NCBI GenBank assembly: GCA_013314735.1
Contig: JABUFD010000003.1
Location: 62,001 to 126,000 of the forward strand
DNA: 64,000 nt
Source of the DNA: Anaerolineae bacterium
Lineage (GTDB): Bacteria > Chloroflexota > Anaerolineae > Anaerolineales > Anaerolineaceae
Direction of reading: 5' to 3'
Shown: positions 48,819 through 56,434 of the stretch, piece after piece
Layout of the letters: every line of letters begins with the position of its first letter
Position numbering within the stretch: the stretch's first letter is position 1
The notes under the pieces: model-generated
What the model saw: only the letters and a program-made list of their open reading frames with translations
The model's database searches: none
What the model was told of the DNA's origin: nothing
Translations under genes and position numbers: made by a program

Positions 48819-49682
48819 TCACGGTACAGGCGGTGGTTCGACGGTAATCCATTCCACCGCTGCGCCCAATGCAGCGAAGCGTTCCCGCATCACGGCAATC
48901 GCCTGGGGGTTGTTATCGGCCAGCAGGAAGGTGCAGCCGCGTTCCAGTGCGGCTTCGCCGGTGGTGCCGGAACCGGCAAAGAAATCCAGCACCACATCGC
49001 CGGGGTTGGCGGAAGCTTGCAGGATGCGCCGCAGGACACCCATCGGCTTCTGGGTGGGGTAACCAGTTTTCTCTTTGCCGTTGGTGGCAACGATCGTATG
49101 CCACCACACATCGGTCGGGAACTTGCCGCGCTCGCGCTTCTCGGCACTCACCAGGCCCGGCGCCATGTAAGGGATGCGCTCGACCTCGTCCCAATTGAAG
49201 GTATAGTTCTCGATGTCCTTCACATACAGCAGGATGTTGTCGTGCTTGGCAGGCCAGCGGTTCTTACCGCGTCCGCCGTAATCGTAGGCCCAGATGATCT
49301 CGTTCAGGAAGTGGTCCCGCCCAAAGATATTGTCCAGCAGAATCTTGCAGTAATGCACCTCGCGGTAATCGATGTGAAAATACAGGCTGCCGTTGTGCTT
49401 GAGCACGCGGTAGGCTTCCCGCAGGCGCGGTTCAAGGAAAGCCAGGAAATCATCGAAAATGTCCCCATACGCCGAACTGCCGACCGCCACACTCTTGTAT
49501 TCGTTTCCGCCAAAGCCCACCCGGTCGCCCTGGCCGGTCTCCGCGCGAACGGTCTTGATGCGCGTACGCCCCTGCACTTTGCCGGTATTAAAGGGCGGAT
49601 CGATGTACACCAGGTCAACAGATGCCGATGGCAGGCTCTCCAGCACGGCCAGGTTGTCGCCAAAATAGACACGGTTCTCCAT
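48819..49682 (-). CDS. Orphan DNA methyltransferase (beta-type N6-adenine/N4-cytosine)
   Basis: 287 aa from the ATG at 49682 (MENRVYFGDN). Catalytic motif IV DPPFNTG lies near the N-terminus (28-34) and the SAM-binding motif I FAGSGTTGE near the C-terminus (235-243), the order of beta-class amino methyltransferases. GYPTQKP is motif X. DPPF suits an adenine-N6 or cytosine-N4 enzyme. No restriction endonuclease or specificity subunit is adjacent, so it is a solitary enzyme, possibly regulatory or a remnant. The frame extends to 49991, but that part overlaps the divergent HD gene. Confidence 0.87.
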   Translation of the reverse strand: MENRVYFGDNLAVLESLPSASVDLVYIDPPFNTGKVQGRTRIKTVRAETGQGDRVGFGGNEYKSVAVGSSAYGDIFDDFLAFLEPRLREAYRVLKHNGSLYFHIDYREVHYCKILLDNIFGRDHFLNEIIWAYDYGGRGKNRWPAKHDNILLYVKDIENYTFNWDEVERIPYMAPGLVSAEKRERGKFPTDVWWHTIVATNGKEKTGYPTQKPMGVLRRILQASANPGDVVLDFFAGSGTTGEAALERGCTFLLADNNPQAIAVMRERFAALGAAVEWITVEPPPVP

Positions 49683-49735
49683 GCCTATTATTCTAACAAA
49701 TGCCGGGAAACCGTGGGGGAAAAACAGGCTTTCGG

Positions 49736-49765
49736 TTAACAAATCCGAAGTGCCTGGACTATAAT
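49736..49765 (+). promoter_or_regulatory. Promoter giving a likely leaderless HD-protein mRNA
   Basis: TTAACA (49736-49741), 18-bp spacer, TATAAT (49760-49765). The ATG at 49773 is 7 bp after the -10, so the message should start at the initiation codon. No Shine-Dalgarno is present. Confidence 0.55.
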
Positions 49766-49772
49766 CACGGGT

Positions 49773-50369
49773 ATGGACAGGAACGAAACCCGTTTGCTCA
49801 CCCTCACCGACATCGAATTCTGCACCGCCGAGGCCGGCGAAACCTGGGCGGTGCCGCACATCCAGCGCCTGCTGGCACTGATCCCGCGTATCGCCGAAGA
49901 TCGCCCGTATGAACAAGAAACCCTCACCTGGGCGGCATGGCTGCACGATTGGGGAGCGTTTAGCAGATACGCCCAACCGGGGGTCGATCATGCCCTGCGT
50001 TCACGCCAGGTGGCTGAAGGTGACATCCTGCCCCAGGCGGACTTCCCGGCGGAAAAGATACCGCTCCTGCTGGAGATCATCGAACACCACGATTACCGCG
50101 ACGCCACCCCCGCCGCGTGCTTTGAAATGCAGTTGTTCCGTGAAGCCGACTTCCTCGACTTCCTCGGCGCAGTTGGCATGGCGCGCGAATTCGCATGGGG
50201 ACCGGGAGACCTTTCCGTGGTGGCCCGCCGCATTCGGTCCCGCATGGGCGGCATCCGCGGACGCTTCACGCTGCCCGTTGCGCAAGCCATGGCAGAGGCA
50301 CGATTGGCGGAAATGGAAACCTTCCTGGCATCTTTGCGAGAAGAAGGATTGGGGACAGTGGCATGCTGA
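49773..50369 (+). CDS. HD-domain phosphohydrolase
   Basis: 198 aa. The metal-binding set is visible: H in VPHIQRL, WLHDWGAF (HD pair, about residues 58-59), H in VDHALRS, EHHDYRD (about 108-114) and a distal Asp in READFLDFLG. It resembles small HD hydrolases of nucleotides and nucleotide-like compounds. The stop overlaps the start of the nucleoside hydrolase gene (ATGCTGA), so a shared operon in nucleotide or nucleoside salvage is plausible. The C-terminal tail (AEMETFLASLREEGLGT) is closely matched by the end of the broken gene at 53228-53515. Confidence 0.8.
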   Translation: MDRNETRLLTLTDIEFCTAEAGETWAVPHIQRLLALIPRIAEDRPYEQETLTWAAWLHDWGAFSRYAQPGVDHALRSRQVAEGDILPQADFPAEKIPLLLEIIEHHDYRDATPAACFEMQLFREADFLDFLGAVGMAREFAWGPGDLSVVARRIRSRMGGIRGRFTLPVAQAMAEARLAEMETFLASLREEGLGTVAC

Positions 50370-53227: not shown

Positions 53228-53515
53228 ATGATGGCTCTTTTCACCAATTCCACCCACAATCTCATCCGCAGCATCGAAACCAACCAGTACGCCCTGTGGT
53301 TGGAAGCCGCGCAGCTCACCGGGCACCCATGGCACCACGATCCACAGATCACCTGGGTCGATTGCAGCCCCTCCCCCTCGCCGCAGGGCATCTTTTCCGC
53401 CCGTTTCGGCAAGGACGAGGCCCAGGAACGCGTGGCATGGGTAAAAAGCCAGGTACTGGCAGAAATGGAAGCATTTCTCACCGCTTTGCTGGAAGAAAGT
53501 TTGGGGACAATGTGA
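53228..53515 (+). pseudogene. Truncated 5' part of acetyltransferase gene fused to an HD-protein tail
   Basis: 95 codons. The ATG at 53228 has GGAG upstream and is the original start of the acetyltransferase gene now continued at 55634. Residues 16-78 (IETNQYALWL through KSQVLA) are identical to that gene because they lie in the 189-bp direct repeat. After the repeat, the last 17 residues (EMEAFLTALLEESLGTM) no longer match the acetyltransferase but closely match the C-terminus of the HD protein at 49773, with about three quarters of the bases identical. The product would lack the whole GNAT catalytic domain and is presumably non-functional. Confidence 0.8.
53272..53460 (+). repeat. 189-bp direct repeat, left copy
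   Basis: Identical over its full length to 55675-55863, as far as I can align by eye. The flanks differ at once on both sides (G/C before, A/C after). It lies within codons 15-78 of the acetyltransferase gene. Confidence 0.9.
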
Positions 53516-53525
53516 GTAATTTCGC

Positions 53526-53553
53526 TTGACAGGGCTAAGTATTCATATAAAAT
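53526..53553 (+). promoter_or_regulatory. Promoter of the nuclease-helicase gene
   Basis: TTGACA (53526-53531), 16-bp spacer, TAAAAT (53548-53553), inside the insertion. The cargo is therefore expressed from its own promoter, with a leader of about 80 nt. Confidence 0.6.
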
Positions 53554-53638
53554 GACACTGTATGGGATCGATAAGGTAACAGCCAACTACAAACAGGATT
53601 TCTTATTTTGTTTATTATGTGAGTATTGAGGTGGGTGT

Positions 53639-55567
53639 ATGGCAATTTGTATACCAGAAACAAATAAAAATTTTGAAACACCTGGCGAACGAAAATTCTT
53701 TTTGCTGCTAAAAAACCTACCTGATTCATGTCTTGTGTATTATGAAATGGTAATTGGCGAGCGTGATAGACGGCCAGACTTTGTTGTTATTGATAAAAAT
53801 AAGGGAATAACAATTTTTGAGGTAAAAGATTATGGAGTGGACACAATATTAGAAGCCACCCCTAAATGGTTCAGAATCGCTGCATCTCAGAATCGAACCC
53901 AAAATCAAAAGAACCCAGACTACAAAGTAAAGCAATATATCGAAGATTTGCGGGAACAGTTGTCAACTCAGGAAACTTTATGCGATACAAGAGATAGGCT
54001 AAAAATCGAAATTTTTCATTTTCTGGTTTTTACTACCATGAGCAAAAGTGAATTCATTGATGCATCATTATCTGAGGTTGTAAAAACGACAAATATACTA
54101 TTTAAAGAAGATATTAAAAATCCTGAGTCGTTTATAAAAGTATACAATCAGTATGAAGATAAAAAAATCACTTCGCCATTAAGTTCTCATCAATTAAATG
54201 CTATCAGGAATTCTTTGTTTCCAGAACTGCTAATCCCTGGTGGAGAACAGTGGTTTTCTTCAAAATCAAAAGGACCAATTATTTCAATTAACAAAAGTAA
54301 TTATGAGTTCGGATTGGACCTCCAACAAGAACAAATGGCGAAATCTTTAGGTAGTGGACCACGCTTTCTACATGGAATTGCTGGCACAGGAAAAACCTTA
54401 ATATTGTTGTTTCACGCCAAATTAATGTCTGCGAATGCATATCACTCCAAAAGGACTCCGAGAATTCTAGTTTTGTGTTGGAATATTAGCTTGGCTCAGT
54501 ATATGAGACATGCATACAAAGCGATTCAGATTCCTGATGCAGTAGATATCGATATTATGCACTTTTCAGCATTTGCTCGTAAAATCATGCGGAATTCTCC
54601 TGGCTTAAATTTTCCGAAACTAAAAGATTTAGATTTTGACGAGAAATTGACTGATGTGCTTAACAATGTTTATGTTAATGAAAATCAAAAGTACGACATT
54701 GTGTATATAGATGAAGCACAAGATTTTCAAAAGGATTGGATCAAATTTATATTTGACAAACTTCTTGAAGGTTCTGCTGACGAACGAAATCTTGTTATTG
54801 CAGGAGATTACGCACAGCAGATTTATAGATATCGGAATTTTGCTAGATCATCTGGTTTCACATGGAAAAGTATTGGAATTCCTATGACAGGAAGGGGGAA
54901 AGCAATCACTTTAAAAAAAATTTACAGAAACTCTGCACGCGTTTGGTCATATGCTGCCGCCTTTTTAGGAGATATCAATAAGTATTATGAAGATAAGGAA
55001 ACAAAAATTTCATTCGCTCCCAAGAAAGGGATAGACCCTCGATTAATCGAGTGCAAATCAATAGATGAGCAACTAGACAAAGCAGTTGATTATGTTTCAC
55101 GGTTGGCGGAATATGGTTACTCGCCCAGAAATGCAATGGTGCTATATAGATGGTCTACATATAAAGGTATTCCTATAATTGCAAAACTGATTGACAAATT
55201 CCAGGAAAGAAAAATACCATACCAATGGATTACTGAGGATAATGAAAAAAAAGCGACATTTGAGTGGGGTGAAGAAAGTGTGAAGATTTCGACAATCCAC
55301 TCAGCCAAAGGGATGGATGCTCCAGTAGTCATTATTTTAGCTGCAGAGGCATTTAAAAGCAAAGAGGAGGAAGATGATAATGAAGGCCAGGATGAGACCA
55401 AGCTTATGTACGTTGGCTTGACAAGGGCACGAGAATTGTTGGTTATTCTACATACAGGAGATAACGGTATGGTACCAAACTTAAAAACAGCTATGGCATC
55501 CTATCATAAATGGAAAGAAACAATAGAACGTTTAGAAGCTAAAGCGAATAAGGAAATTACAAACTAA
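53639..55567 (+). CDS. NERD nuclease-UvrD-like helicase fusion (putative defence gene)
   Basis: 642 aa. The N-terminal NERD domain (about 10-130) has GERKFF, the acidic D47 in RPDFVV and the FEVKD motif (Glu61, Lys63) of PD-(D/E)XK-like nucleases. The SF1 helicase follows: Walker A GIAGTGKT (246-253), DEAQ (VYIDEAQDF, 355-363), AGDYAQQIY (388-396), KIYRNS, STIHSAKGMDAPVVI and motif VI YVGLTRAREL (591-600). Nuclease-SF1 helicase fusions occur in phage-defence loci. The base composition is unlike its neighbours and it lies inside the repeat-flanked insertion, so transfer is likely. GAGGTGGGTG precedes the ATG. The defence role is inference. Confidence 0.88.
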   Translation: MAICIPETNKNFETPGERKFFLLLKNLPDSCLVYYEMVIGERDRRPDFVVIDKNKGITIFEVKDYGVDTILEATPKWFRIAASQNRTQNQKNPDYKVKQYIEDLREQLSTQETLCDTRDRLKIEIFHFLVFTTMSKSEFIDASLSEVVKTTNILFKEDIKNPESFIKVYNQYEDKKITSPLSSHQLNAIRNSLFPELLIPGGEQWFSSKSKGPIISINKSNYEFGLDLQQEQMAKSLGSGPRFLHGIAGTGKTLILLFHAKLMSANAYHSKRTPRILVLCWNISLAQYMRHAYKAIQIPDAVDIDIMHFSAFARKIMRNSPGLNFPKLKDLDFDEKLTDVLNNVYVNENQKYDIVYIDEAQDFQKDWIKFIFDKLLEGSADERNLVIAGDYAQQIYRYRNFARSSGFTWKSIGIPMTGRGKAITLKKIYRNSARVWSYAAAFLGDINKYYEDKETKISFAPKKGIDPRLIECKSIDEQLDKAVDYVSRLAEYGYSPRNAMVLYRWSTYKGIPIIAKLIDKFQERKIPYQWITEDNEKKATFEWGEESVKISTIHSAKGMDAPVVIILAAEAFKSKEEEDDNEGQDETKLMYVGLTRARELLVILHTGDNGMVPNLKTAMASYHKWKETIERLEAKANKEITN

Positions 55568-55633
55568 AGAATCTAGCGCCTTACATGACTAGTGGTGATG
55601 TCGCGTACTTATTTCTTAAAGGTGTTGGAACAT

Positions 55634-56434
55634 ATGCCGCAAGATATACTCAAACCGTCACTAGTGACCACTGCCATCGAAACCAACCAGTACGCCCTGT
55701 GGTTGGAAGCCGCGCAGCTCACCGGGCACCCATGGCACCACGATCCACAGATCACCTGGGTCGATTGCAGCCCCTCCCCCTCGCCGCAGGGCATCTTTTC
55801 CGCCCGTTTCGGCAAGGACGAGGCCCAGGAACGCGTGGCATGGGTAAAAAGCCAGGTACTGGCCGGCAAAGCTCCACGCCTGTGGATGTGCGGGCCTTCC
55901 CAACAGCCGGATAATCTCGAGACCATCCTGGAACAGCACGGCTTTGTGCGCCGCTCGGAAACCAGCGGGATGGCACTCGACCTCACCTTGCTGGAAGACG
56001 ATGAAGCACCCCCAGCCGGTGTTGAAATACATCCGGTTGACCGCACCAACCTGACCGCCTGGGCGCGGGTGGTCGGCGAAGGGCTGTTCCGCTGCGATGA
56101 GGAGCGCGCCGATGCCTTCGCCGCAGTGATCGGCGCCCTGCTCGACCGGCAGCGGGTTACCGCCTACCTGGCGTATTGGCAGGGCGAGCCTGCTTCCGCC
56201 AGCATGGTGTACTTCGCCGAAGGTGTGGCGGGTATTTACTACGTTGCCACCCGCCCGGATTTTCGCAGCCACGGGCTTGGGCGTGCGGTCACCCGCGCGC
56301 CGTTGCTGCAGGCGCGCAAGTCGGGAACCCCGGCCGCCATCCTGCATGCCACCGAATCCGGGGCGCGCGTCTACCGCAAACTGGGATTCCAGGCTTACAG
56401 CCTGCTGGGACGCTATTGGCTGGTAGAAGACTAA
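55634..56434 (+). CDS. GNAT-family N-acetyltransferase with replaced N-terminus
   Basis: 266 aa from the ATG at 55634 (AAAGGTG upstream). The GNAT core is complete: IYYVATRPDFRSHGLGRAVT with the R-x-x-G-x-G acetyl-CoA loop (RSHGLG), then SGARVYRKLGFQ near the C-terminus. The first 14 residues (MPQDILKPSLVTTA) come from the AT-rich insertion and replace the original 15 residues left behind at 53228. The protein is thus almost unchanged in length (266 against a reconstructed 267). GTG 55592 and ATG 55598 are longer alternatives. Acceptor unknown. Confidence 0.78.
   Translation: MPQDILKPSLVTTAIETNQYALWLEAAQLTGHPWHHDPQITWVDCSPSPSPQGIFSARFGKDEAQERVAWVKSQVLAGKAPRLWMCGPSQQPDNLETILEQHGFVRRSETSGMALDLTLLEDDEAPPAGVEIHPVDRTNLTAWARVVGEGLFRCDEERADAFAAVIGALLDRQRVTAYLAYWQGEPASASMVYFAEGVAGIYYVATRPDFRSHGLGRAVTRAPLLQARKSGTPAAILHATESGARVYRKLGFQAYSLLGRYWLVED
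55675..55863 (+). repeat. 189-bp direct repeat, right copy
   Basis: Second copy of the repeat at 53272-53460, offset by 2,403 bp. It continues in frame into the intact acetyltransferase gene and has the GC-rich composition of the host DNA. Confidence 0.9.

What the first reader, a model, noticed from the sequence alone, without database searches (positions are those of the whole stretch)
53272..55863. Nuclease-helicase gene inserted in an acetyltransferase gene between 189-bp identical direct repeats
The AT-rich 2.2-kb block with a NERD/UvrD-helicase gene splits a GC-rich acetyltransferase gene, and the ends are a 189-bp perfect direct duplication of that gene. Transposons make target duplications of a few bases, so this needs another route. 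Single-crossover (Campbell) integration of a 2,403-bp circle that already carried 189 bp of the acetyltransferase gene explains the layout, as would a replication-based tandem duplication with captured DNA. No recombinase is encoded. This may represent a minimal, host-dependent way for a defence gene to move.
Basis: partly seen in the sequence, partly recalled or inferred. Interest (0 to 1): 0.85.

Follow-up and report, generated by a model that had tools for sequence, protein, structure and literature searches.

The report
Foreign helicase gene between duplicated halves
A foreign DNA-cutting helicase gene sits inside a bacterial acetyltransferase gene between two identical 189-base copies of that gene; the ends of the insert look like pieces of neighbouring genes from a relative, so this looks like a one-off recombination accident of a known kind rather than a new type of mobile element.

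Summary
A perfect 189-bp direct repeat (53272-53460 / 55675-55863) flanks a 2,214-bp insert whose only long ORF is a 642-codon NERD-UvrD gene. It is the longest exact direct repeat in 400 kb of this contig.

The insert's two ends change the reading. The left end matches the 3' end of the HD-domain-like gene 3 kb upstream (39/51 nt; 0 of 1000 genomic controls score as high). The right end looks like the start of another GNAT gene: it replaces the first 14 codons, in frame, so the downstream copy is again a complete 266-codon ORF. The donor was therefore probably an HD'-helicase-GNAT' stretch, joined to the host by about 4-5 bp of microhomology on the left and near the matching GNAT position on the right. 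A template switch out and back, or a single crossover of a re-circularised fragment, gives this layout and the duplication.

A habitual mobile unit is not supported: 0 of 57 helicase-family loci have an exact flanking repeat of 20 bp or more (41 with at least 500 bp on both sides). "Insertion with long target duplication" and duplications from one-sided homology are published. New member of a known kind.

The parts
53231..53460 (+). Upstream, truncated copy of the GNAT acetyltransferase gene with its own N-terminus (MALFTNSTHNLIRS...); runs in frame into the insert and stops at 53515
53272..53460 (+). Direct repeat copy R1, 189 bp
   Evidence: 100% identical to R2
53461..53515 (+). Left end of insert: 3' end and stop of a diverged HD-domain-like phosphohydrolase gene (donor HD')
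   Evidence: 39/51 nt identity of 53462-53512 to 50310-50360, SW score 54; 0 of 1000 genomic 57-mers reach it
53526..53553 (+). Sigma-70-like promoter TTGACA-16-TAAAAT ahead of the helicase gene
   Evidence: 11 of 12 consensus positions; 9 such sites found in the region against 6.0 (sd 2.2) in shuffles, so weak
53639..55567 (+). NERD nuclease - UvrD-like SF1 helicase gene, 642 aa
55634..55674 (+). Right end of insert: donor-type GNAT start (MPQDILKPSLVTT-), in frame with R2
55675..55863 (+). Direct repeat copy R2, 189 bp
55634..56434 (+). Hybrid, complete GNAT acetyltransferase ORF, 266 aa
49773..50369 (+). Local HD-domain-like phosphohydrolase gene whose 3' end is matched by the left end of the insert
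   Evidence: Pfam HD 0.023 and NCBIfam phosphohydrolase NF007515 3.9e-8, both below the curated cut-off; its homologue in L063 (51% id.) hits Pfam HD at 1.7e-8

Best explanation
A fragment of a relative's chromosome with the order HD'-helicase-GNAT' entered the cell and was joined to the host GNAT gene by two unequal joints. On the left, the host sequence runs to the end of R (..CTGGC) and continues into the 3' end of the donor HD' gene at about 4-5 bp of shared sequence (illegitimate joint). On the right, the donor GNAT' gene leaves off after about its 14th codon and the host GNAT gene takes over at, or within one codon of, the matching position (homology-guided joint). Because the host was left at R position 189 and re-entered at R position 1, the 189 bp were copied twice. 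A replication or repair fork that switched template from host to donor and back is the simplest single event that gives two identical host-derived R copies. The helicase gene arrived as a passenger; the host kept a full-length acetyltransferase ORF with a foreign start. Shown: the repeat, the gene-end match on the left, the in-frame full-length hybrid ORF, the GNAT-like N-terminus (statistical), no Ku match, a ComEC match. Inferred: the donor, the order of events, template switching, uptake by transformation.
For: Left end: 39/51 nt match, in frame and within two codons of the stop, to the HD-like gene only 3 kb upstream, same orientation; 0 of 1000 random 57-mers of the contig match the window as well. 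Right end: the N-terminus MPQDILKPSLVTTA fits the nearest GNAT homologue found (L129, 38% id.) at 147.8 bits against 140.7 for the host's own N-terminus; 0 of 2000 genomic and 0 of 2000 shuffled N-termini reach it; L140: 0 and 5 of 2000. Hybrid and empty-site ORFs are both 266 codons. R1 = R2 at 189/189 although the left end is only 76% identical to its host counterpart and the N-terminal 42 nt agree at only 11 positions: both R copies are probably host DNA. No Ku match, so joining by canonical NHEJ is unlikely; ComEC/Rec2 match at 9e-54. In published E. coli work, imported DNA meant to have homology at one end gave mostly duplications of the homologous locus, 109-950 bp in the 14 sequenced (PMC3240628, section 12 read).
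Against: No donor was found: helicase homologues at E<=1e-20 in 3 of 147 family genomes (the window's own, G003, G007) and in 1 of 400 phylum genomes, the own one; the best, G003, is 46% identical over residues 330-634 of a gene cut by the contig end. HD and GNAT2 homologues are not neighbours in any relative locus examined: 0 of 90 loci with a hit (overlapping loci counted; most have 1.5-kb flanks) carry two of the eight query genes; in L063 a GNAT gene lies directly upstream of the HD homologue, but it is not a GNAT2 relative by tblastn. Over all homologues the N-terminus test is weaker: with a profile of 19 rows 31 and 90 of 2000 nulls reach the score, and in 5 of 13 distinct homologues the host N-terminus scores better. 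The published duplications were ascribed to single crossover, not to template switching. The joints cannot be read exactly without the donor.
Confidence: 0.5

Rival explanations
1. Single crossover (Campbell) of a re-circularised donor fragment. A linear donor piece was trimmed into GNAT' on one side and HD' on the other, its ends were joined to a 2,403-bp circle, and this crossed once with the host GNAT gene within R.
For: Gives the same layout including the swapped N-terminus. Same product class and size range in E. coli: 56 of 60 clones gave the PCR product for a duplication, 14 were sequenced (109-950 bp), explained by the authors as a single crossover of a circular molecule that had lost part of the homologous segment (PMC3240628, section 12).
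Against: The two R copies would differ wherever donor and host differ. They do not differ at any of 189 sites, while the insert's left end is 76% identical to its host counterpart and the N-termini agree at 11 of 42 nt. Needs an identical donor R or gene conversion over all of R.
Confidence: 0.27
2. Insertion with long target duplication in the sense of Nobusato et al. 2000: the helicase unit inserts at a long staggered break or between sister chromatids, independently of homology at its ends (the staggered-break and sister-chromatid picture is mine).
For: Same layout as reported for restriction-modification genes; long and variable (order of 100 bp) target duplications are described (passages in PMC3874152, PMC3031569, PMC1643837; Nobusato 2000 and Furuta 2010 themselves not seen).
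Against: Does not explain why the ends match an HD-like gene 3 kb away and a GNAT start near the matching codon. 0 of 57 helicase-family loci show exact flanking repeats >=20 bp. No Ku match.
Confidence: 0.1
3. A site-specific or trans-mobilised cassette that carries a replacement 5' end for its target gene, R being an attachment-like repeat.
For: The insert supplies a new in-frame start so that the target ORF is again full length, as gene-end-restoring islands do (recalled, no call).
Against: No integrase in the insert; helicase relatives lack exact repeats, and five checked loci (L105-L107, L165, L166; L107 and L165 hold the same gene) show no GNAT or HD match; a single case.
Confidence: 0.06
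4. Assembly or strain-mixing artefact.
For: The genome is a 13-contig assembly, 95.5% complete, 1.95% contaminated; reads are not available.
Against: The R1-insert joint shares only 4-5 bp with the likely partner, too short for a k-mer join (inference); the contig is 565 kb; both ORFs are intact.
Confidence: 0.07

Closest known systems
Insertion with long target duplication (Nobusato et al. 2000; Furuta et al. 2010; known here only from passages in PMC3874152, PMC3031569 and PMC1643837)
   Same: A DNA-acting gene unit, no recombinase, flanked by a long direct duplication of the order of 100 bp of the target
   Different: Gene is a NERD-UvrD helicase, not restriction-modification; here the insert's ends resemble gene ends of a donor, giving a homology-based reading; no sister strain with the empty site is available
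Homology-facilitated illegitimate recombination and the duplications found beside it (PMC3240628, section 12; PMC5361080, passages, for effector-immunity arrays)
   Same: One joint homology-guided, one joint illegitimate; duplication size in the published range
   Different: Classical HFIR gives a deletion; seen here only as a natural product without its donor
Tandem duplications in transformation by pairing with sister chromatids (PMC3784515, abstract and passages)
   Same: Partial duplication driven by imported DNA with homology
   Different: Those are about 100-900 kb and need a chromosomal repeat; here 189 bp
PADLOC candidate NERD+UvrD (PDLC01087, C3a187); Nhi-like systems
   Same: NERD plus UvrD helicase in one protein, E 2.4e-74; NERD is listed for Mokosh type I and Nhi-like systems (PMC10952713, one passage)
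   Different: Defence not tested for this protein; Nhi or Mokosh membership not tested. Of the two Anaerolineae homologues with full-length genes, L105 lies beside an E1/E2-like cluster and L106 beside glycine-cleavage-like genes (the latter by eye), so a defence neighbourhood is not clear

Membership tests
Insertion with long target duplication | Insert flanked by long (order of 100 bp) direct duplication of target sequence | tested here: met
   189/189
Insertion with long target duplication | Uninterrupted single-copy target in a closely related strain | tested here: inconclusive
   Joined flanks give an intact 266-codon ORF, and distant homologues exist (22 of 61 and 67 of 400 genomes with a match, own included), but the one same-genus genome G001 (69% complete) has no match
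Insertion with long target duplication | Insert is a restriction-modification unit | tested here: not met
   Only a NERD-UvrD gene
Homology-facilitated illegitimate recombination (HFIR) | One end of the imported DNA homologous to the recipient at the joint | tested here: inconclusive
   Right end GNAT-like and within a codon of the matching position; donor not found
Homology-facilitated illegitimate recombination (HFIR) | Other joint illegitimate, at no or few shared bases | tested here: inconclusive
   Left joint CTGGC against TTGGC in the local HD-like gene; the donor's own letters are unknown
Homology-facilitated illegitimate recombination (HFIR) | Deletion of recipient DNA of similar size | tested here: not met
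   Duplication instead; published as the commoner product in one E. coli set-up
Transposon | Terminal inverted repeats, transposase, short target duplication | tested here: not met
   No transposase ORF, no inverted repeat pairing the two ends of the insert in the list, 189-bp duplication
NERD-UvrD defence candidate (PADLOC C3a187) | Profile match over most of the protein | tested here: met
   residues 14-604, profile 16-542 of 559, 2.4e-74
NERD-UvrD defence candidate (PADLOC C3a187) | Protects against phage | not testable with these tools
   needs an assay

The most novel reading that the evidence does not exclude
The unit is a gene-restoring, recombinase-free cassette: a defence-like helicase gene that travels with a substitute 5' end of a common acetyltransferase gene, so that homologous recombination in the host inserts it without loss of the target gene, and recombination between the 189-bp repeats can excise it precisely as a 2,403-bp circle.
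Probability: 0.06. Interest if true: 0.75.

Novelty: new member of a known kind. Interest (0 to 1): 0.33.

Why it matters
It is an unusually readable scar of how a single foreign gene enters a chromosome without a recombinase: the insert's own ends point to the donor gene order and to one illegitimate and one homology-guided joint. If a donor turns up, the 189 bp can tell template switching from single crossover, which is otherwise hard to do for the long target duplications known from restriction-modification genes. It does not show a new mobile element.

Tried and rejected
Transposon or integron cassette: rejected, no transposase or integrase and no terminal inverted repeats. Canonical NHEJ capture: made unlikely by the lack of a Ku match in a 95.5% complete genome (among 14 control genomes the same search found Ku only in Bacillus subtilis). 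A second copy in the own genome: none, one match only. Origin of the right end from the own GNAT paralogue on contig C4: no useful nucleotide match (best local score 22 of a possible 214; no null was run).

Habitual mobility of the helicase with repeats: first tested on 28 loci that I had picked, then on all 57 loci: 0 of 57 with an exact flanking repeat >=20 bp; 41 of 57 have at least 500 bp on both sides; 8 of 57 had no usable flank (under 30 bp) on one side for the gapped search. Gapped hits in 4 of 57: L085 (47 bp, 74%), L094 (66 bp, 76%), L116 (43 bp, 86%), L118 (40 bp, 77.5%); not followed further. Many of the 57 are distant relatives with matches to part of the helicase only. An old, decayed duplication could be missed.

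Donor search in viral contigs and plasmids with the GNAT protein: no viral relative; 26 plasmid records, all below 60% identity; in phages the helicase has matches in 5 records, none covering 80%. First genome-contig scan with the single helicase gave none. Gene order around coaBC in 29 of the 47 relatives with a match: none has GNAT2, HD or helicase within the 1.5-kb flanks. In the N-terminus test four of 19 homologue rows were dropped for the single-homologue runs (L148, L152, L005, L006: match did not reach the N-terminus or was in a wrong frame) but stayed in the 19-row profile, and two genes occurred twice (L004/L025), leaving 13 distinct. I did not run a structure prediction.

The alternative polarity (the right-hand start being native and the left-hand one foreign) was considered. 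It is disfavoured because the right N-terminus needs a one-residue gap near the joint in 4 of the 11 alignments listed, but it is not excluded; the right N-terminus in fact scores better than the left one in 8 of 13 homologues.
Full report
What is there. The window lies at bases 62001-126000 of a 565-kb contig (C6) of a 4.09-Mb, 13-contig genome. Its closest helicase homologues are in MAGs named Anaerolineae; I take it to be an Anaerolineae bacterium (inference). A 189-bp segment occurs twice, 53272-53460 and 55675-55863, with no difference. With 0 differences in 189 sites, the 95% upper limit on divergence between the copies is about 1.6%, so the event is not old, or the copies have been kept alike. 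In 400,000 bases of the contig there are 9 exact direct repeats of 24 bp or more; this is the longest by far, and five of the others, including the next four in length, lie in or beside a tandem pair of MFS transporter genes.

The insert. Between the two copies lie 2,214 bp, 53461-55674. They hold one long ORF, 53639-55567 (642 aa), with a NERD domain (residues 15-132) and UvrD-type helicase domains; GTGKT, the DEAQ box and the EVK of the nuclease domain can be read in the alignment with plasmid relatives (motif names recalled). Its G+C is 0.358 against 0.508-0.649 in five neighbouring genes. A promoter-like TTGACA-16-TAAAAT lies about 85 bases before its start, though such sites are only slightly commoner here than in shuffles (9 against 6.0, sd 2.2). 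No recombinase is encoded.

The ends of the insert. Left: 53462-53512 matches 50310-50360, the 3' end of an HD-like phosphohydrolase gene 3 kb upstream, at 39 of 51 nt, in the same orientation and with stops two codons apart. Against the window, 0 of 1000 random 57-mers from the rest of the contig score as high (54 against a best of 42). Right: an ATG at 55634 opens MPQDILKPSLVTTA, in frame with the second copy, and gives a 266-codon acetyltransferase ORF, the same length as the ORF obtained when the two flanks are joined. This N-terminus resembles N-termini of GNAT homologues (QDLFTPALV-TAIEAN in L129, QDLSEPSIM-NAIEAN in L140). With L129, the nearest homologue found, 0 of 2000 genomic and 0 of 2000 shuffled N-termini do as well; with L140, 0 and 5 of 2000. 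Over 13 distinct homologues the new N-terminus scores above the host's own in 8 and below in 5, and with a profile of 19 rows the result is only suggestive (31 and 90 of 2000). At the DNA level the two N-termini agree at 11 of 42 positions, as by chance.

Reading. The insert is best seen as a piece of a donor chromosome with the order HD'-helicase-GNAT'. The left joint is illegitimate: host CTGGC against TTGGC in the local HD-like gene, that is about 4-5 shared bases (the donor's own letters are unknown). The right joint falls at, or within one codon of, the matching position of the two GNAT genes, as homology would dictate. If copying left the host at the end of R, followed the donor and came back to the host at the start of R, R is duplicated in one event and both copies are host DNA, hence identical. 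If instead the fragment was closed to a circle and crossed once with the chromosome, the copies should differ wherever donor and host differ. The divergence of the insert's ends (76% and chance level) makes an identical donor R unlikely, but gene conversion could hide it. I put template switching or an equivalent two-joint repair at 0.5 and single crossover at 0.27. The R1-insert joint is unlikely to be an assembly join, since 4-5 shared bases are too few for one (inference; no reads seen).

Routes in. The genome has a ComEC/Rec2 match, so uptake of DNA is possible; it has no Ku match by Pfam search. Precedent: in E. coli, among 60 clones expected to be HFIR products, 56 gave the PCR product for a duplication of part of the homologous locus (14 sequenced, 109-950 bp), ascribed to single crossover of a circular molecule that had lost part of the segment, and 4 appeared to be true HFIR (PMC3240628, section 12 read). 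Effector-immunity arrays have been explained, tentatively, by HFIR (PMC5361080, passages), and long, variable target duplications of the order of 100 bp are described for restriction-modification genes (PMC3874152, PMC3031569, PMC1643837, passages; the primary papers were not seen, PMC2853133 is not held). None of the titles and abstracts listed in searches reports a NERD-UvrD gene in such an insertion; these searches cover only the open library.

Is it a mobile unit? The close helicase family is patchy: E<=1e-20 in 3 of 147 genomes of the family and in 1 of 400 of the phylum (the own one included in both); tblastn at 1e-5 finds 80 plasmid records, all below 60% identity. In all 57 helicase-family loci, 41 of them with at least 500 bp on both sides, none has an exact flanking repeat of 20 bp or more; a gapped search gives hits of 40-66 bp at 74-86% in 4 of 57 (L085, L094, L116, L118), which I did not follow; the window in the same test gives its 189 bp. 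The Anaerolineae homologues L105, L106 and L107 show no GNAT or HD match nearby (L106 has only about 140 bp on its left and L107 is cut by the contig end). So the layout is a single case, and the family does not habitually move this way as far as these loci show. Some distant relatives keep company with defence-like genes: a viperin-family gene on a Nostoc plasmid (L073) and an N-6 DNA methylase on a Vibrio plasmid (L074); two E. coli plasmid relatives lie among transposase and toxin-antitoxin genes. With the PADLOC match this makes a defence role plausible, not shown.

Verdict. A real, well-observed recombination scar of a known kind: interest moderate, novelty a new member of a known kind.

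Noticed in passing
window 48819-49991 (-), next to the HD-like gene: DNA methylase gene (N6_N4_Mtase, 2.8e-46); no restriction partner was looked for.
   Followed up: no
L105 7973-10769: The Anaerolineae helicase homologue lies beside a cluster with a ThiF-type E1 (1.2e-29) and a weak E2-like protein (UQ_con 0.0076, below cut-off), i.e. a possible ubiquitin-like conjugation system.
   Followed up: partly
L034 457-2253: The NERD-UvrD homologue in G007 has one in-frame TAG: decayed gene or sequence error.
   Followed up: no
G000 contig C6 164-167 kb, outside the window (L176 4136-7182): Tandem pair of MFS transporter genes (Pfam MFS_1 3.9e-37 and 5.5e-35), 1.75 kb apart, with exact shared stretches of up to 56 bp.
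   Followed up: partly
L073 (Nostoc plasmid pn2) and L071 (Euhalothece plasmid pEu1): NERD-UvrD relatives with another UvrD-helicase gene directly upstream (L071) or close upstream (L073), the latter after a viperin-family and a deoxynucleoside kinase gene.
   Followed up: no
L063 456-2061: In a relative (G041) a GNAT gene (Acetyltransf_1 6.1e-13) lies directly upstream of the HD homologue; it has no tblastn match to the window's GNAT genes.
   Followed up: partly
L116, around 662 and 2906: A 43-bp, 86% direct repeat brackets the partial helicase gene of an Elusimicrobia MAG contig; could be an intergenic repeat or an older duplication.
   Followed up: no
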